From Lachnospiraceae bacterium (lineage in GTDB: Bacteria; Bacillota; Clostridia; Lachnospirales; Lachnospiraceae), in the NCBI GenBank assembly GCA_902363835.1, contig CABJBM010000003.1, positions 186,001 to 250,000 on the forward strand: 64,000 bases of DNA, given 5' to 3'. This document shows, piece after piece, positions 30,762-56,714 of this stretch (position 1 is its first letter; every line of letters starts with the position of its first letter). The translations under genes and the position numbers were made by a program. A model generated the notes under the pieces. It was given only the letters and a program-made list of their open reading frames with translations. It did no database searches and was not told the DNA's origin.

Positions 30762-31652
30762 TTATTCTTCAATAACAACCTTAAACATATCATCAACCGT
30801 ATCCAGTAATTCATATCTCTTATCAAATGGAGCCGTAGAACTTCTTGCAAATTTTCTTTCTACCATATCAATATAATAAGTTGACGTACCATCGTCTCCC
30901 ATATAAAATTCTTCCCAATCCTTATCACTCATAAGTCTTTTTACATCAAGCTGCTCAATAGCAAGATTATCAAAACTTGCCACCTCGAATCCTTTTATGA
31001 TGTCTGCCAGATTTTCTTTTAACCAACTCTGCTCTGGAAGAATGTTTTCATATTCTTCTGAAAACCAATCTTTACCACGTCTCAAGTTCTTATATCCTAG
31101 AATGAGCATTTTAAGATTATTATTGGATAACCGTTCTACATCAGAAGGCTTGAGAATACCGTTAATTACATGAATAACTGCATTATCGTACTGTTTAATC
31201 ATAGAAATAAAATTATCAGTAGGATTGACAAGTGATACCCCTAATCCGTAAATTAGTTTCTCGTCAATCAGCATTTTAATTAAACTCTGTTTTTTCTCGA
31301 AATGTATTTGATTAACCGTCATATTAGCAATTACTTTTTTATCTTTTAATTTCTGCAAGAATGGAATTAAATCCGGATGGCTAGTGGCATCTCCACCACC
31401 AATAGCAACTTCCTGATACGGATGGAACGTATTAGTAAATTTCTCATTTAAAATATCTCCAAACTTACCACTCGTAGTACTTCCTTCATGACAAAATGAG
31501 CAGTTCATGTCGCAGTAATTGCAGATTTTAATGTCCATATTTTCAGCAAAACCAGCTTTAAAGTTGTCATCTTTTGTTTCTCTAATCTTCGTACCATCGC
31601 TAAAAAGCCTTGTAGTGAAGTTACCATTCAAATATGTACCTAATAATTCCAT
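30762..31652 (-). CDS. Radical SAM enzyme
   Basis: The 296-residue protein has the iron-sulfur motif CNYCDMNCSFC (C47, C51, C54 forming CxxxCxxC, preceded by C44) and the glycine-rich AIGGGDATSHPD that binds SAM. The rest follows the partial TIM-barrel pattern (VIANMTVNQ, GLGVSLVNP, HVINGI). Radical SAM enzymes cut SAM to a 5'-deoxyadenosyl radical; the substrate is not evident. It lies beside two tandem paralogues of the RRGxFETNSSSTHS family. Confidence 0.8.
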   Translation of the reverse strand: MELLGTYLNGNFTTRLFSDGTKIRETKDDNFKAGFAENMDIKICNYCDMNCSFCHEGSTTSGKFGDILNEKFTNTFHPYQEVAIGGGDATSHPDLIPFLQKLKDKKVIANMTVNQIHFEKKQSLIKMLIDEKLIYGLGVSLVNPTDNFISMIKQYDNAVIHVINGILKPSDVERLSNNNLKMLILGYKNLRRGKDWFSEEYENILPEQSWLKENLADIIKGFEVASFDNLAIEQLDVKRLMSDKDWEEFYMGDDGTSTYYIDMVERKFARSSTAPFDKRYELLDTVDDMFKVVIEE

Positions 31653-33639: not shown

Positions 33640-34656
33640 TTATTTCATGTCTTTAATTATCTCGTATTCGCATTCTGGAAGTGTCCCGCTCAATATAGCA
33701 TTACCACAAGTAATTCTTCCTTCATCTTCATCGCTACTTGGAATGAATATCAACACATCAAAACCTTCGTTAATTAATTCTCTTTCTACTTTCTTATACG
33801 GTACAAAACTTTTATACCCACCGGTAGTCTTGATGTTGTTTTCTTCGCAGGAATGCGTCATATGTAGAGGTGTGATTTTTACCATACATTTTCGTGGGTC
33901 AAATAACTCTCTTAATTTTTTAGCATCCACTTCATATGAATCCGCAAGAGCAAAATTCAAAGCATATTTACGCCCAATTGGTTCTGGTAAATCTTTTACA
34001 ATATCAGAAATTTCTTTTAGTGATTTGGCACTTCCACCAAACATATCATCTCTTTGACAATCTGATGTACTATTAATGCTTAACTGTAATCCAGCGTCTC
34101 CTCTATATAAATCATTTTTGATATCCACAGTCCATTCGTTTAATATTTTAAACAAACTGCTGTTTTTAGCTGGACACATGGTTGTAAATATCGGGTGAAT
34201 CAAGCTATTACCAATATGCGGTCTGACGATTTTATGTAAGTCCCTTGTTGCTGCCAATACATTTGGATTCCATGACGGTTCGCCCATTCTAGCATAGTGA
34301 ATGTTCAATCTTTTAGTGCCGCCGACTTCCGGATGTAACAATAATGAGGTTTCTATTTGATTGCGAATATCGTCATACGTTGCATTTATTCCTTTTCCCA
34401 CCTTTGGCACGTCGCAAAATTTACAACCGCTACTGCAACCATATTGAGTAGAAATTGTAACAACCCACTTTTCCTCCAAGGACATACATTCACCGTTTGC
34501 CACTCCGTTGACATCTTTATTTAGTCCAAGGAATTGAGCCTTTACGTTTTCATTTCTACCATAATCTCCAATAGATAAGCACTCCAAATTGCCCTTGTCT
34601 CCTTCTACAATTAAGATGTTACCAGTCGGGACTTTAATGTTCTTAATAATGTTCAT
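33640..34656 (-). CDS. Radical SAM enzyme, RlmN/Cfr-like
   Basis: The 338-residue protein contains QYGCSSGCKFCD with C74, C78 and C81 as the CxxxCxxC iron-sulfur ligands and a later RMGEPSWN segment near 140, as in RlmN (MGMGEP). A Cys before the C-terminus (HMTHSCEENN) sits where RlmN/Cfr have their methyl-carrying Cys. This fits a phage RNA methylase-like enzyme acting on adenines of rRNA or tRNA. It is more divergent than cellular RlmN, so the target is uncertain. Confidence 0.75.
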   Translation of the reverse strand: MNIIKNIKVPTGNILIVEGDKGNLECLSIGDYGRNENVKAQFLGLNKDVNGVANGECMSLEEKWVVTISTQYGCSSGCKFCDVPKVGKGINATYDDIRNQIETSLLLHPEVGGTKRLNIHYARMGEPSWNPNVLAATRDLHKIVRPHIGNSLIHPIFTTMCPAKNSSLFKILNEWTVDIKNDLYRGDAGLQLSINSTSDCQRDDMFGGSAKSLKEISDIVKDLPEPIGRKYALNFALADSYEVDAKKLRELFDPRKCMVKITPLHMTHSCEENNIKTTGGYKSFVPYKKVERELINEGFDVLIFIPSSDEDEGRITCGNAILSGTLPECEYEIIKDMK

Positions 34657-35158: not shown

Positions 35159-35187
35159 TTGACAGTGTTTTTTCAACATGCTATAAT
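35159..35187 (+). promoter_or_regulatory. Consensus promoter for small RNA A
   Basis: On the plus strand TTGACA (35159-35164) and TATAAT (35182-35187) are separated by exactly 17 bases, a perfect vegetative sigma-factor promoter. No open frame follows, so it serves the small RNA at 35194-35325. Confidence 0.8.
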
Positions 35188-35193
35188 GCAATC

Positions 35194-35325
35194 GTGGCTA
35201 ATGCCACTTCTACTTCACTTTTCCCCTCTGTGGGATCTTGCTCATTCGAGCAATGTGTAGTAGGTCTGTAAATTGGGACGAATCGAGGTACTGCCAATAC
35301 CGTTTGAGATTCGTCCCTTTTATAT
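35194..35325 (+). ncRNA. Small RNA A, nested-hairpin 3' domain
   Basis: Transcription should begin near 35194 and end at the T run at 35318-35321. Two short hairpins (GTGGC/GCCAC, TTGCTC/GAGCAA) lead to a perfect 10-bp stem (GGGACGAATC 35275-35284 with GATTCGTCCC 35308-35317). Its loop contains a four-base hairpin, GGTA-CTGCCAA-TACC. The same layout appears in small RNA B, with the closing pair A-T in A replaced by G-C in B. It is antisense in direction to the methyltransferase gene whose 3' end it abuts. Not matched to a known RNA family by me. Confidence 0.65.
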
Positions 35326-36120
35326 TTATGAGAGATATTTCATCACACCGGACTTTCTCTTGAGTAATAATTTTACATGCGTACTATCATGCAATTGAAT
35401 TCCAAAATCCTCATCTATCTTATTTGCTGTAAATGGGAGCACGTAATCCTCGAAATATATAATTTCGTATTTATCCGTCGGAACTTTGCTTAGCAATTTT
35501 TCCATAGTAATAGGAAAATAATTCTCTCTTACTTCGCGCTCCCAGTTTGAAACATATCGATATTTCATGAGGAAATGTACTAAATTTCTATTCTCAGTTA
35601 TACTTCCCCATATACTTTCGTAGTCTAATACTTGATTTGCATCTGCTTTTTGTATCACCTTTACCCAATCATTCACATCCGCCTTACGATTTACAGAAGA
35701 GCTAACACAAAAGTCTCGGATTGCGATGTATTGGAAGCCCGGATTAAATACACTATTCCAAAATTCACTAATGGCATACGGCATAGAGTATGAATAAACT
35801 TCGTGAATCACGCTAGATAAATTTAGGAGTGATTTATTAGCATTAACAATACTTAAAGCTTCATTAAAATCGCTAGTAAACAATCCACTCGTTTTATCCT
35901 TACCTTTTGCTAATTTAATCATTTCTTGACTAATGTCATATCCTATAAGACTTACGCCAGGTAGCCCTTTTGACATATGCTCAATTAACGTTCCGTCTGC
36001 GCAGCCAAAATCAACCAACTCTGTAATGTCATCAATCTTGTCCATAAAGAACAACTTGTCCTGAAAAGATTTCCCCATTCCTTCTATGTAAGTGTCATAA
36101 TTTTTAATAGATTCACCCAT
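35326..36120 (-). CDS. SAM-dependent methyltransferase
   Basis: The 264-residue protein has VDFGCADGTLIEHM (about residues 36-49), the glycine-rich SAM-binding motif I of class I methyltransferases, followed by GYDISQEMIKLAK (acidic loop binding SAM) and FTSDFNEAL. The C-terminal half carries FEDYVLPF. The substrate is not evident. It starts two bases after the sigma-DUF262 gene stop codon, so it belongs to that operon. Confidence 0.75.
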   Translation of the reverse strand: MGESIKNYDTYIEGMGKSFQDKLFFMDKIDDITELVDFGCADGTLIEHMSKGLPGVSLIGYDISQEMIKLAKGKDKTSGLFTSDFNEALSIVNANKSLLNLSSVIHEVYSYSMPYAISEFWNSVFNPGFQYIAIRDFCVSSSVNRKADVNDWVKVIQKADANQVLDYESIWGSITENRNLVHFLMKYRYVSNWEREVRENYFPITMEKLLSKVPTDKYEIIYFEDYVLPFTANKIDEDFGIQLHDSTHVKLLLKRKSGVMKYLS

Positions 36121-36121
36121 A

Positions 36122-38278
36122 TTACACCGCCCTCTTCTTTAGCAGCTGAGCAAAGCCATCTAAATCATCTCTCATATGTAAATAATTCTCTTTTTGATTC
36201 ACTATGTATGTACTATTTTTCTTTGCAAACTCCGCAAACCAGCTCTGCGCAATGTCATCACATTCATGATCACATGCATATCCCACAATACCAAGTAGCG
36301 AAGAGAGGTTGTCCAAGTTAATTAGCTTAGAGTCATAGTCTATATCCAATGTCCACTCATCAAGCATAGATAGATATAACTCTACATCTTCCTCTGTCTT
36401 TTCGGAGCCAGAATTTTCACGTACAAAATCTAACGTCTGAATCGCTGCCTTGCAAATATCATCGTTTGTACTACCTACACATGCTTTTACATAGTCTGAT
36501 TTTGAAAAGTTGTCCACATAATCGGCAGATGTGGTTTTAATCTCTTTCTTTGATACTTTTGCTTTTTCAATATGTAAATAATCATTCATCAAATGCTCTA
36601 AATGATTTATCTTGCTGACAACCACGGCTTTATCTTTAGTTGATTTTCCATTTAAGTTATCAAATGAAACGCCGTCGATCTCTTTGCTATGTAATGACTG
36701 ATTAAATTCAGCCATAAATTCGATGAACTTCTTGTCATCTAATCCGGTATCCATAAACCTGGCGTATAATCCAAAGTAAATAAAGGAATCCTTAGAATCA
36801 AACATATTGAAGACCTCTTCTGTTCCAACATTTGTGATTCTTCCAACCATATCCTCAAAATTGTCAAAACATTCAGTAGTGGCATTTTCTTTCATGTATT
36901 CGCATATATCCTCTTGCTTCTTTTTCCAATCATTTAAGAAGTTGACAGCCATTACGGATTCAACGACTACTCGATTCACAGTGCCATTATTTCCTTCTGA
37001 CACTTTATACCCACCAAGATCTTTGAAGAATGGCATACCAGATATACTCTTGACCATTGAAGCAAACTCCTCTCCAAGCCTAGTAATACCCTTCTGAGAA
37101 GCCGTCATAGGCTTTCCCTCATTGTATCGTGCGATGTGGTAAGCAATATCCTCACTAGAGCAGTTTAAATACTGTACGATTTCAAAGTTATACTCATTAA
37201 ACTTGTCCTGCAATTCCTCTGGTAAATCTGAGAACTTTTTCCCACGTATATCAAATTCTCTTCTTTCGCTGATAGGGAATCTTTTATCGTCAAGTTTTGG
37301 GCTTCCATCTTCGTTTTTAATTTGAGCCTGATACTCGATATTCCATCTTCTAATATTTTTTGAAATCTTATATCCGCCCTTAACGAATGAATGTGCATTT
37401 GTGCAGCGTTGCTTTCCATCTAAGTCCCATATAATAGCAAGTCCATTCATTATCTGTTCTGCAAATACAAGGGCAGGAATTGGATTCCCCTGTAAAATGT
37501 CAGAAATCAGATTCCCCTTCATGCCAGGACTCCATTGCTCTGATTCCCTCTGGAGTGGATGATCAAACCTGATAGTATAATTATCAATCTTTTTAATAAT
37601 GGCCGCGATACTAAGCCTATCAGGCTTGCTTTTTTCCAGTGTCTGTGTAAATGTTTGCCCCATTTTCTTCTCCTCAATTTTTGAACATGCCGTTCTATCT
37701 CTAAATAATATTTGCGTGTTACGAAAAGACTTTATTTGCCTACAATGATCTTCATATTGACCATCTGTTAAGTTTAGGTTGCATTTAATCTCCGAAATAG
37801 TAACATCATTCATCTTCATCTCAACTATTTGCCGTTGAACCGATGATAAACCATTGAGATATTTTTCTACTTTTTCATCGTTTGAAACACCAATTTTATC
37901 CAGTGTTTCTTTTTCAATGTCATAGTCAGATGCCAACAGGTCGCCAATAGTGGCATTTTCATCTACACCAATGGGCGCATCAATAGAAACTGATAACCTG
38001 TCCGCCTTACGTTTTTCTCTATTAAGTCCGGTCATCTCCGTTTTGAATTTTCTAGCTAGGCAACCCTTTAAATAAACTTCAAACAGAATCCCCTTTGATT
38101 CATCAAAAGTTTCTGTTGCCTTCCATAATTCTTCATTGGCTTTACTGTAAAAATCATCATGATCTTTTTCTGAAATTCCGCCAAACTTTATGAATAACGG
38201 ATATGATATTTTTCTGAGTTTAGCCATGTTGTTTGATGCATACTCGTCCAATAATTGCTGTTTTTGCATAGAATCCAT
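36122..38278 (-). CDS. Sigma-factor/DUF262 fusion protein
   Basis: The 718-residue protein joins two modules. Residues 30-100 resemble sigma-70 region 2 (DDFYSKANEELWKATETFDESKGILFEVYLKG), and residues 136-186 resemble region 4 (GLSSVQRQIVEMKMNDVTISEIKCNLNL), an extracytoplasmic-type sigma arrangement. Residues 210-560 form a DUF262 domain with FDHPLQRESEQWS near 238 and DGKQR at about 287-291, the ParB-like nucleotide-binding signature of GmrS-type proteins. A C-terminal helical region follows. DUF262 proteins serve in phage defence and restriction; the sigma fusion suggests control of transcription by the nucleotide-dependent domain. It lies behind a LexA-box promoter. Confidence 0.75.
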   Translation of the reverse strand: MDSMQKQQLLDEYASNNMAKLRKISYPLFIKFGGISEKDHDDFYSKANEELWKATETFDESKGILFEVYLKGCLARKFKTEMTGLNREKRKADRLSVSIDAPIGVDENATIGDLLASDYDIEKETLDKIGVSNDEKVEKYLNGLSSVQRQIVEMKMNDVTISEIKCNLNLTDGQYEDHCRQIKSFRNTQILFRDRTACSKIEEKKMGQTFTQTLEKSKPDRLSIAAIIKKIDNYTIRFDHPLQRESEQWSPGMKGNLISDILQGNPIPALVFAEQIMNGLAIIWDLDGKQRCTNAHSFVKGGYKISKNIRRWNIEYQAQIKNEDGSPKLDDKRFPISERREFDIRGKKFSDLPEELQDKFNEYNFEIVQYLNCSSEDIAYHIARYNEGKPMTASQKGITRLGEEFASMVKSISGMPFFKDLGGYKVSEGNNGTVNRVVVESVMAVNFLNDWKKKQEDICEYMKENATTECFDNFEDMVGRITNVGTEEVFNMFDSKDSFIYFGLYARFMDTGLDDKKFIEFMAEFNQSLHSKEIDGVSFDNLNGKSTKDKAVVVSKINHLEHLMNDYLHIEKAKVSKKEIKTTSADYVDNFSKSDYVKACVGSTNDDICKAAIQTLDFVRENSGSEKTEEDVELYLSMLDEWTLDIDYDSKLINLDNLSSLLGIVGYACDHECDDIAQSWFAEFAKKNSTYIVNQKENYLHMRDDLDGFAQLLKKRAV

Positions 38279-38321
38279 TTTGCCACCGCCTTATTTATAC
38301 TAATGAGTCAACAGTGTTAAA

Positions 38322-38391
38322 CAACCGATGTGCGACTTGAACACACCCCAAGATAATCAAAATACCCTGTGCTACCTTACACCAATCAGTT
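38322..38391 (-). tRNA. tRNA-Gln (anticodon TTG)
   Basis: The minus-strand sequence folds as a complete tRNA: acceptor AACTGAT/ATCGGTT (one G-T pair), short D-arm GTG/CAC with GG in the loop, anticodon arm GGGTA-TTTTGAT-TATCT with anticodon TTG and U33/A37 in place, and T-arm GTGTG-TTCAAGT-CGCAC. The discriminator base is G, and CCA is not encoded. The reduced D-stem and G-T pairs suggest a divergent phage tRNA. It lies in the leader of the sigma-DUF262 gene and might supply Gln (CAA) decoding. Confidence 0.75.
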
Positions 38392-38455
38392 ACAATATTT
38401 AATTCTCCATTCATTTATGGGAGACTATAGCAGAAACGCCGATACATGAAATTGC

Positions 38456-38484
38456 TTGACTAATAAAAAGAAATTATGTAAAAT
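38456..38484 (+). promoter_or_regulatory. Promoter for small RNA B
   Basis: TTGACT (38456-38461) and TAAAAT (38479-38484) are 17 bases apart on the plus strand, directly upstream of a structured non-coding stretch with a terminator. Confidence 0.7.
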
Positions 38485-38490
38485 ACAATC

Positions 38491-38617
38491 AAGCATAGTA
38501 ATCTGCTATGTTTCATAAGTCCGGCCGTTTCTGGCTTTGATTTATGTTATGTGTAGAATCACAGTCTGTTTGCGGAGGTGCGCCAACACCGATGAAGCTA
38601 AACAGACTGTGATTTTT
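38491..38617 (+). ncRNA. Small RNA B, nested-hairpin 3' domain
   Basis: From its promoter the RNA holds two small hairpins (CATAG/CTATG; CCGG/CTGG) and then a perfect 15-bp stem (AATCACAGTCTGTTT 38557-38571 with AAACAGACTGTGATT 38600-38614) ending in T5. In the loop, GGTG-CGCCAA-CACC forms a four-base hairpin preceded by GA and followed by CG, as in small RNA A. The outer stems of A and B have no sequence in common but are both perfectly paired. It is antisense to the leader of the sigma-DUF262 operon. Confidence 0.65.
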
Positions 38618-38647
38618 ATTTAATCAATAGCACCGTGACTGGTTATG

Positions 38648-38698
38648 ATTATAAATCGAACATACGTTCTTTGTCAAGGTCTTTCGAATATATGTTCG
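38648..38698 (-). promoter_or_regulatory. SOS-type promoter with two LexA boxes
   Basis: On the minus strand TTGACA and TATAAT are 18 bases apart (38677-38648). Between them lies CGAACATACGTTCT (38657-38670), matching the Gram-positive LexA consensus CGAACRNRYGTTYC at 13 of 14 positions. A second site, CGAATATATGTTCG (38685-38698), lies just upstream of the -35 with two mismatches. This promoter reads into tRNA-Gln, the sigma-DUF262 fusion and the methyltransferase, so the operon should respond to DNA damage. Confidence 0.7.
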
Positions 38699-38710: not shown

Positions 38711-38992
38711 TTATTCCCTTAACAATATAGTACTTAATTTACCTCGCGGAATTATATTCCTTATATCTGGTTGCTTTTCAGTAAACACCCTCAATTGATT
38801 CACAAAATCATCATACACTCTTGCAATCGTTTCGGCTTCCATAATTATGTTTTCGCATTCATGTTTGCCTTTCTTTACAAACTCAGGAATCTCATCGCTT
38901 TCCAGGTCTTGAACTGCAACAAGAACTGTTTTAGATTTGTTGCCACGATTATATTTAAGTGCTTCTTCGATAGTCATTTCGATATATTGCAT
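38711..38992 (-). CDS. Possible MazE-like antitoxin partner
   Basis: The 93-residue protein starts at an ATG behind GGAGAGGTGG, one base after the stop codon of the MazF-like gene. It is helical and acidic (MTIEEALKYN...KKGKHECENIIMEAETIARVYDDFVNQLRVF). Its small size and coupling to MazF suggest the antitoxin, although the gene order toxin-first is the reverse of the usual one and I do not see a classic AbrB DNA-binding fold. Confidence 0.5.
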   Translation of the reverse strand: MQYIEMTIEEALKYNRGNKSKTVLVAVQDLESDEIPEFVKKGKHECENIIMEAETIARVYDDFVNQLRVFTEKQPDIRNIIPRGKLSTILLRE

Positions 38993-38993
38993 A

Positions 38994-39356
38994 TTAGGCC
39001 ACCTCTCCGAAATTAGCGTCATATACACGCCTTATTTCTTTTTTCTCTTTTACATCGGAAATATAACCGAGGTATTTAATGATTCTCTTTTCTGATATTT
39101 GTCTCATGCATTCTCCTAACACCATTGAATCCTCAACCAGCCCCTTTTCGTTTCCTTTCTCAATGAGAGTATGCGTTGGCTGATTGAGATTCTTAACTTG
39201 ACTTGTTAACGGCATTACAATGGTTGTACTGCTATAGAAATTTCCCACGTCATTTTGTATAATTACTGCCGGTCTTATACCGCCCTGCTCTGAGTCAATT
39301 ACATTTAATCCGAAATCTACAAGTACAATATCATATCTTTTTAAATCCTGTGTCAT
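38994..39356 (-). CDS. MazF/PemK-family toxin
   Basis: The 120-residue protein has the MazF/PemK features KRYDIVLVDFGLN, GGIRPAVIIQND (GxRPxvVvs-type) and TIVMPLTSQVK, followed by GECMRQISEKRI, the SH3-like endoribonuclease pattern. Such toxins cut mRNA at short sites. The preferred start follows AAAGGAGG; an upstream TTG/ATG would add 18 residues of low quality. Located upstream of its likely antitoxin and divergent from a repressor gene. Confidence 0.75.
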   Translation of the reverse strand: MTQDLKRYDIVLVDFGLNVIDSEQGGIRPAVIIQNDVGNFYSSTTIVMPLTSQVKNLNQPTHTLIEKGNEKGLVEDSMVLGECMRQISEKRIIKYLGYISDVKEKKEIRRVYDANFGEVA

Positions 39357-39408
39357 AATTTTACGCATCCTCCTTTCTTCAACACTTGCCAATCTCTTTA
39401 TACTCAAC

Positions 39409-39437
39409 ATTATATACTACGCTTTATATAAAGTCAA
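39409..39437 (-). promoter_or_regulatory. MazF promoter with palindromic operator
   Basis: Minus strand TTGACT (39437-39432) and TATAAT (39414-39409) with 17-base spacing. The 12-base perfect palindrome CTTTATATAAAG (39422-39433) lies in the spacer, and a near copy (CTATATATAAAG) lies about 60 bases away, before the divergent repressor gene. It fits operator sites for the MazE-like protein or the adjacent HTH repressor. Confidence 0.6.
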
Positions 39438-56611: not shown

Positions 56612-56682
56612 CTTATATCCTCCATTTTTATGTATTAATGCTTGCGGACTTGTGACCGCTTGACTTGCGCCAAGTGCATTAA

Positions 56683-56702
56683 AGCAGCCCTGATAGGCTG
56701 CT
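56683..56702 (-). terminator. Intrinsic terminator
   Basis: AGCAGCC/GGCTGCT forms a seven-bp stem with a six-base loop; the coding-strand tail reads TTTAAT. It separates 56715-57497 from the operon to the left. Confidence 0.65.
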
Positions 56703-56714
56703 CCACTCTGCTAA

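What the first reader, a model, noticed from the sequence alone, without database searches (positions are those of the whole stretch)
35159..38617. Two related small RNAs bracket the sigma-DUF262/methyltransferase operon
Each RNA has its own near-perfect vegetative promoter (TTGACA or TTGACT, 17 bases, TATAAT or TAAAAT), no open frame, and ends in a long perfect stem with a T run. Inside the stem loop both carry a four-pair hairpin closed by GGTR and YACC around CNGCCAA, preceded by GA and followed by CG. The R-Y pair is A-T in RNA A and G-C in RNA B, and the outer stems differ in sequence but are each perfectly paired (10 and 15 bp). That is compensatory variation, which implies selection on structure. 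Both are transcribed opposite to the operon they flank. A possible unnamed RNA family that controls or is controlled by the operon.
Basis: partly seen in the sequence, partly recalled or inferred. Interest (0 to 1): 0.85.

Follow-up and report, generated by a model that had tools for sequence, protein, structure and literature searches.

The report
Antisense RNA opposite SOS-controlled phage operon
A phage-like element carries two copies of an undescribed small RNA, and one of them is made from the opposite strand of the start of a gene group that appears to be switched on by DNA damage, so it probably acts as a second lock on those genes.

Summary
RNA A (~35194-35324, +) and RNA B (~38490-38618, +) share a terminator stem capped by GGTR-C(N)GCCAA-YACC. 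The RNA is a real family: on 22 aligned matches 95.9% of cells pair and 12 of 14 pairs show two-sided changes. No Rfam family covers it in the window or in 12 other loci. Members were found mainly in Lachnospiraceae genomes and in viral contigs of unknown host.

RNA B lies between a convergent, LexA-type promoter and the sigma-DUF262 gene, so the operon transcript would run antisense through all of RNA B, then tRNA-Gln, then sigma-DUF262. Of 22 RNA copies, 15 have such a facing promoter with paired SOS boxes and 13 have sigma and/or DUF262 beyond it. Of 43 sigma loci, 14 have the SOS boxes but no RNA found, so the RNA looks like an added layer. The methyltransferase is not a constant partner. 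RNA A is a stand-alone paralog without SOS boxes.

Best reading: a constitutive antisense RNA locking an SOS-induced operon, working like SymE/SymR or pIP501 RNAIII. Repression is inferred; I had no expression data.

The parts
35159..35187 (+). promoter of RNA A (TTGACA-17-TATAAT, TG before -10)
   Evidence: 12 of 12 consensus positions
35194..35324 (+). RNA A, stand-alone paralog; capped terminator at 35275-35322
   Evidence: fold z -5.96; CM R1 63.3 bits (it is one of the sequences the model was built from); ends inferred from promoter and T run
35326..36120 (-). class I SAM methyltransferase-like gene, downstream in the operon
   Evidence: Pfam methyltransferase hits, all just under their curated cut-offs
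36122..38278 (-). sigma factor (region 2, and a region-4-like HTH by eye) fused to a DUF262/GmrSD_N domain
   Evidence: Pfam GmrSD_N 37 bits above cut-off, Sigma70_r2 21.8 bits below cut-off; PHROG sigma factor 43.3 bits; model matches
38321..38392 (-). tRNA-Gln (TTG) within the leader of the SOS-driven transcript
   Evidence: ARAGORN, Rfam tRNA 42 bits
38426..38434 (+). left half (TATAGCAGA) of the inverted repeat that flanks the RNA B promoter
   Evidence: 8 of 9 match; not significant in this copy alone, 35 of 200 shuffles as good; half-sites recur in other loci
38456..38484 (+). promoter of RNA B (TTGACT-17-TAAAAT)
   Evidence: 10 of 12
38490..38618 (+). RNA B, antisense to the leader of the sigma-DUF262 operon; capped terminator at 38562-38614
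   Evidence: fold z -6.33; CM R1 47.0 bits (also a training sequence); ends inferred
38502..38510 (+). right half (TCTGCTATG) of the inverted repeat, inside the 5' part of RNA B
38648..38677 (-). convergent promoter TTGACA-18-TATAAT of the sigma-DUF262 operon
   Evidence: 12 of 12
38657..38670 (.). LexA/SOS-type box CGAACATACGTTCT in the promoter spacer
   Evidence: 9 of 10 positions
38685..38698 (.). second LexA/SOS-type box CGAATATATGTTCG upstream of -35
   Evidence: 9 of 10 positions

Best explanation
RNA B is a constitutively made, about 130-nt antisense RNA that covers the leader of an SOS-inducible operon. Without DNA damage, LexA blocks the facing promoter and RNA B pairs with whatever leader transcript escapes, so sigma-DUF262 stays off. 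On DNA damage LexA leaves, leader transcripts and convergent polymerases override RNA B, and the sigma factor is made. The conserved GGTR-CGCCAA-YACC cap on the terminator hairpin is the likely first-contact (kissing) loop, since the leader necessarily carries the complementary UUGGCG loop. RNA A is a stand-alone paralog that could act on the same leader in trans. Shown: the RNA family, its structure, the convergent SOS-type promoter and their recurrence. Inferred: transcription, LexA binding, repression, loop contact, and any role of RNA A.
For: RNA family: 22 matches (21 distinct rows), 95.9% of cells paired, 12 of 14 pairs with two-sided changes, 63 such cells against at most 14 when slid by 1-3 columns. 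Strand: 15 G-U cells against 3 A-C cells in paired columns, and the RNA strand folds better than its complement in 22 of 25 copies, in some by under 1 kcal/mol. SOS boxes (8 or more of 10 positions): at least one within 170 nt past the RNA in 16 of 22 copies, 15 as a pair, against 0.096 expected per stretch. A convergent promoter of 11-12/12 with a box in or next to its spacer: the same 15 of 22, plus 4 copies that I found by looking between SOS boxes and sigma genes, hence not independent (19 of 26). Neighbour: sigma and/or DUF262 beyond the RNA, divergent from it, in 13 of 22; in L128 and L216 one further ORF lies between. In a mixed set of 43 sigma loci, 14 of the 15 RNAs found by script lie between an SOS pair and sigma (L314 has no pair found), and of 14 SOS pairs without RNA 13 sit within 145 bp of the sigma ORF or inside its stop-to-stop extension. 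The same cassette precedes an HTH and a tubulin-like gene (named by eye) in L160 and L132, so it looks like a control module. RNA A pairs with the RNA B leader better than 198 of 200 shuffles.
Against: No transcript data. In 13 leaders scanned I found no ordinary intrinsic terminator that an attenuation switch would use. The RNA cap lies 193 to 1264 nt from the sigma ORF in 14 of 15 loci (60 nt in L314), so direct blocking of translation is unlikely in most. Seven of 26 copies lack the convergent SOS promoter within the stretch examined (winA, L230A, L103, L264, L140, L261, L262); L261 has an SOS pair further out. The cap loop is nearly constant across loci, which pure cis-antisense pairing does not require. 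RNA A in L230 carries an A-C mismatch in the outer stem and a wobble in the cap, and its complement folds better. Several copies are close relatives, so independent cases are fewer than the counts.
Confidence: 0.6

Rival explanations
1. The RNA is a protein-binding RNA. The constant cap hairpin and the GA / GUUUGA internal loop (k-turn-like in copies such as B) bind a protein, perhaps the sigma-DUF262 product itself, and hold or guide it.
For: The cap loop and, in most copies, the internal loop are more conserved than antisense pairing needs; the RNA sits near sigma/DUF262 in 13 of 22 copies.
Against: The internal loop changes side or sequence in L121, L235, L305, L231 although the sigma-DUF262 partner is kept; the RNA is also found with no sigma-DUF262 hit in the fetched loci L132, L140, L262, L264.
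Confidence: 0.2
2. The main effect is transcriptional interference: a strong convergent promoter ending just short of the SOS promoter dampens it, and the RNA product itself does little.
For: The two promoters face each other and the SOS promoter begins 9-47 nt past the RNA core in 19 of 26 copies.
Against: Covariation in paired columns and the G-U over A-C bias point to selection on the RNA product, though a terminator alone also needs a paired stem.
Confidence: 0.12
3. The RNAs act on other targets in trans, and the SOS transcript through RNA B is there to switch the RNA off during damage.
For: Stand-alone copies with no convergent SOS promoter found exist (winA, L103, L262, L264; L298, sequence seen, not scanned), and they share the cap.
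Against: No common other target was looked for; most copies are placed in an operon leader.
Confidence: 0.12
4. The conserved element is a DNA site (cruciform or recombination site) and the promoter and terminator likeness is incidental.
For: The cap is short and palindromic; a copy occurs on an Acidobacteria contig with a relaxase-like gene (L140, named by eye).
Against: G-U pairs outnumber A-C mismatches 15 to 3, T runs follow the stem on the RNA strand in the copies printed, L140 apart, and a promoter-like site lies upstream on that strand in 17 of 22 copies.
Confidence: 0.04

Closest known systems
SymE/SymR of Escherichia coli (PMC1891008, passages seen)
   Same: A LexA-controlled gene and an antisense RNA from the opposite strand, complementary to the 5' end of its mRNA; the two repress additively.
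   Different: Here the RNA lies in a long leader instead of having its promoter inside the ORF, has a conserved capped terminator shared between loci, and the gene is a sigma-DUF262 protein, not a MazE-like toxin. No sequence comparison was made.
pIP501 repR leader control by RNAIII (PMC4981023, passages seen)
   Same: A 136-nt antisense RNA convergent with a repressor-controlled promoter that has a 329-bp leader; Gram-positive mobile element.
   Different: The repressor is CopR, not LexA; the target is a replication gene; RNAIII causes attenuation, for which I found no intrinsic terminator here.
Antisense transcription in restriction-modification systems (PMC12707154, passages seen)
   Same: Convergent promoters that act by collision and by antisense pairing on the facing mRNA.
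   Different: No SOS control mentioned in the passages seen, and different genes.
TisB/IstR-1 of Escherichia coli (recalled)
   Same: SOS-induced mRNA held by a constitutive small RNA acting on its leader.
   Different: Divergent genes, toxin peptide product; recalled, not compared here.
UviA, DNA-damage-linked sigma factor of a Clostridium perfringens bacteriocin plasmid (listing; details recalled)
   Same: An alternative sigma factor on a clostridial mobile element tied to DNA damage.
   Different: No DUF262 domain and no antisense RNA that I know of (recalled).
Rfam Spy392987 (RF02592)
   Same: A terminator-like hairpin; 20.6 bits to RNA A.
   Different: Below the gathering score of 47; the printed alignment shows the stem ends and hides the cap region.

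Membership tests
Any Rfam 15 family | score at or above gathering threshold over the RNA | tested here: not met
   Searches (window: one match, twister-P5; 12 loci: tRNAs and one skipping-rope), none over these RNAs
SymR-type antisense lock on an SOS gene | target promoter carries LexA-type boxes | tested here: met
   sequence match only, LexA binding not tested
SymR-type antisense lock on an SOS gene | RNA gene on the opposite strand, inside the target transcript | tested here: met
   transcript extent inferred from promoters
SymR-type antisense lock on an SOS gene | RNA represses the target | not testable with these tools
   needs expression data
pIP501-type leader attenuation | mutually exclusive leader hairpins with a terminator beyond the antisense region | tested here: not met
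   0 of 13 leaders with an intrinsic terminator by a simple scan; complementary half-sites (GCAGAA or GCAGAT, then TTCTGC) in that order in 9 of 13
k-turn RNA | 3-nt bulge plus tandem G-A pairs between two stems | tested here: inconclusive
   by eye only: B-type fits (GAT bulge, GA/GA); most copies have GTTT; absent in L121, L235, L305
type I toxin-antitoxin | small hydrophobic toxin encoded by the target | tested here: not met
   target is a 718-aa sigma-DUF262 protein

The most novel reading that the evidence does not exclude
A trans-acting RNA immunity network between mobile elements: because the cap loop is nearly the same in distant elements, a resident stand-alone RNA such as RNA A silences the SOS-triggered operon of any element whose leader carries the matching loop, and the loop variants seen (CGCCAA, CACCAA, CTGCCAA, TTCCCG, TTCCAG, CGGCAA, CTGGAA) are specificity groups.
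Probability: 0.2. Interest if true: 0.8.

Novelty: new variant of a known kind. Interest (0 to 1): 0.6.

Why it matters
It gives a testable double lock (LexA plus antisense RNA) on an alternative sigma factor fused to a DUF262 domain in mobile elements and chromosomes of Lachnospiraceae, and an RNA family that Rfam 15 does not hold. If confirmed, it would show how such elements couple DNA damage to a private transcription programme, and would add a family for genome annotation.

Tried and rejected
From the sorted lists I kept members by eye (long outer stem, GA/GTTTGA-like flanks, T run); dropped although they have stems of 8-10 bp: L113, L023, L102, L089, L078, L005, L174, L226. L140 was kept with an 8-bp stem and no T run because its 23-nt core is identical. 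Rfam Spy392987 likeness rejected. CM hit L265 rejected by eye as a plain terminator. MTase as a constant partner rejected by eye from ORF lists (no domain search there); phage MT835469 does have a related MTase and sigma-DUF262. Attenuation by an intrinsic terminator looked for and not found. The inverted repeat round the RNA promoter: at most 12 of 200 shuffles as good in L128, L132, L180, L216, L230B, L232, L257, L261; more in winB, L152, L208, L258, L262 and in winA, L103, L230A, L264; five copies had no promoter by the script's rule (the best arms in L261 and L208 were not the GCAGAA half-sites). Kept as a recurrent motif, function open. Overlap with coding: in L103, L264 and L140 an opposite-strand ORF runs into the RNA core, so coding could add constraint there. 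An earlier count said 17 of 22 copies with SOS boxes and the entry says 20 of 26 with the promoter; recounting gives 16 of 22 and 19 of 26, used here. Literature: listings (no paper) show nothing that describes this RNA or a sigma-DUF262 protein with an antisense RNA; I opened passages of three papers only; the library holds open-licence papers only.
Full report
What is there. A: promoter 35159-35187 (12/12), transcript about 35194-35324. B: promoter 38456-38484 (10/12), transcript about 38490-38618 (ends inferred). Both fold far better than shuffles (z -5.96 and -6.33). The capped terminator occurs twice in the window; of 60 shuffles one has one and none has two. Rfam has no match to them at gathering score.

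It is a family. A pattern of the cap plus flanks, scanned in viral contigs (13 stretches) and in one genome per species (79 stretches), and a looser one in viral contigs (19 stretches), gave mostly chance matches. Those kept by eye for a long outer stem are L103, L128, L132, L133 (same contig as L230), L140, L152 (Lachnospiraceae CE91-St56), L160 (Lachnospiraceae MAG), L180 and L208 (Eisenbergiella porci and E. tayi), L216, and the record G001, which is identical to the window over RNA A and the sigma-DUF262 protein. A covariance model (R1, built from 11 of these sequences, window included) found matches in 10 of 397 Lachnospiraceae genomes; one is E. tayi itself and one (L265) I reject by eye, which leaves 8 new. 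A second model (R2) found 2 of 391 Clostridia genomes, one of them E. tayi again, the other a weak match with the exact cap. So, as far as searched, the family is concentrated in Lachnospiraceae; the hosts of the viral contigs are not known to me. L140, on an Acidobacteria contig with a relaxase-like gene (by eye), is the outlier.

Structure is selected. On 22 aligned matches (21 distinct rows) 95.9% of cells pair, 12 of 14 pairs have two-sided changes, and 63 cells do, against at most 14 in slid controls and none of 500 shuffles. That alignment was fitted to the model, which leans towards it; the MAFFT alignment of 11 sequences, with a structure that I named, gives the same picture (95.0%, 10 of 14). 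The cap itself varies with its partner: GGTG/CACC, GGTA/TACC, GCTG/CAGC. G-U cells outnumber A-C cells 15 to 3, and the RNA strand is the more stable one in 22 of 25 copies (L230A, L262 and L264 are the other way; several differ by under 1 kcal/mol), so the transcribed strand is what seems to be selected. The internal loop is not constant: 5' GA with 3' GTTTGA in most, 5' ATAT or ATTAT with nothing opposite in L121, L235, L305, and 3' ATAT in L231. The cap stem is the most constant part.

The facing promoter. Just past the 3' end of RNA B lies TTGACA-18-TATAAT on the other strand (12/12) with a LexA/SOS-type box (CGAACNNNNGTTYG form; consensus recalled) in its spacer and a second box upstream. 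Of the 22 RNA copies first collected, 16 have at least one box (8 or more of 10) within 170 nt, 15 as a pair; 0.096 are expected per stretch. A convergent promoter of 11-12/12 (TTGACA or TTGACT counted as consensus) is present in the same 15; L262 instead has a same-strand one. Four further copies (L121, L235, L231, L305) were found because I looked between SOS boxes and sigma genes; with them it is 19 of 26. Copies without: winA, L230A, L103, L264, L140, L261, L262. Several copies are close relatives (winB/L230B; L128/L216; L152/L180/L208), so the number of independent cases is smaller.

What the promoter drives. In 13 of the 22 copies sigma and/or DUF262, fused or as two adjacent genes, lies beyond the RNA and divergent from it (hmmsearch, RNA positions): winB, L230B, L128, L216, L152, L180, L208, L232, L257, L258, L260, L261, L263 (DUF262 part only in L263, sigma part only in L257, whose contig ends). 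In L128 and L216 a further ORF of 207 aa lies between. L259 would be one more only if its contig is circular. A tRNA lies between in the window, L133/L230, L128, L216, L232, L299 and L257. In L160 and L132 the same cassette precedes an HTH gene and a tubulin-like gene (named by eye). Starting from the protein, 28 of 397 Lachnospiraceae genomes carry sigma and/or DUF262; I fetched 26 further regions, 23 with a sigma part. In a mixed set of 43 sigma loci, an SOS pair was found upstream in 31 and an RNA in 15 by script, plus L121 and L235 by eye and L260 by model, so 18 of 43; L259 and L309 had almost no upstream sequence. Of the 15, 14 have the SOS pair beyond the RNA; L314 has no pair found. 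Where an SOS pair is found without RNA (14 loci), it is within 145 bp of the sigma ORF, or inside its stop-to-stop extension, in 13; L236 is the exception at 854. So SOS-type boxes are common before sigma/DUF262 in this family and the RNA is an added layer in a subset.

How it probably works. RNA B is complementary to the leader from close to its start. Antisense control of this general layout is established for SymE/SymR (PMC1891008, passages), pIP501 RNAIII (PMC4981023, passages) and some restriction-modification systems (PMC12707154, passages). The near-constant cap loop is best explained as the contact loop; its complement UUGGCG fits the YUNR rule (rule recalled). Whether the outcome is RNase cleavage, interference or attenuation is open: no intrinsic terminator was found in 13 leaders. 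RNA A has no SOS boxes; its predicted duplex with the RNA B leader is better than in 198 of 200 shuffles, which is expected from homology and allows, but does not show, action in trans.

The protein. The model of sigma-DUF262 (mean pLDDT 73.5, pTM 0.34) gives one PDB match below E 0.001; most of the 50 listed are chains of RNA polymerase initiation complexes that I take to be sigma subunits (reading recalled), with BrxU at rank 49, E 0.073. TM-scores are low, so this is weak support. Domain scores: GmrSD_N 37 bits above cut-off, Sigma70_r2 21.8 bits below its cut-off of 24; PADLOC NsnA 53 bits over residues 196-492. What the sigma factor transcribes is unknown.

Verdict. A real RNA family that Rfam does not hold, most likely an antisense lock on an SOS-controlled sigma-DUF262 operon. 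It is a new variant of a known kind of control. The decisive evidence, expression with and without DNA damage, could not be obtained here.

Noticed in passing
window 56644-56712 (-): Type-P5 twister ribozyme, 51.9 bits, above Rfam gathering score.
   Followed up: no
window 38994-39410 (-) and 38711-39028 (-): PemK/MazF-like toxin gene followed by a small ORF; by eye, similar PemK-like genes and small ORFs recur upstream of the RNA in L128, L133, L216, L257.
   Followed up: partly
L103 5972-6295 (-), L264 8687-9085 (+), L140 1406-2674 (+): Opposite-strand ORFs read through the RNA core and encode SNGVGAP; either chance or coding constraint on the same bases.
   Followed up: partly
window 33640-34656 (-) and 30762-31652 (-): Two radical SAM-like proteins near the operon, both under the Pfam cut-off; by eye L231 has a similar one near its sigma-DUF262 gene.
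   Followed up: no
L257 8038-8120 (-): Skipping-rope RNA, 72.8 bits, on the same contig as an RNA of this family.
   Followed up: no
L216 7985-8645 (+): The sigma gene is split over two overlapping frames, so it looks broken in this record.
   Followed up: no
L262, 46-75 nt past the RNA core end (-): An SOS-type promoter on the same strand just downstream of a stand-alone RNA copy, unlike the convergent layout elsewhere.
   Followed up: no
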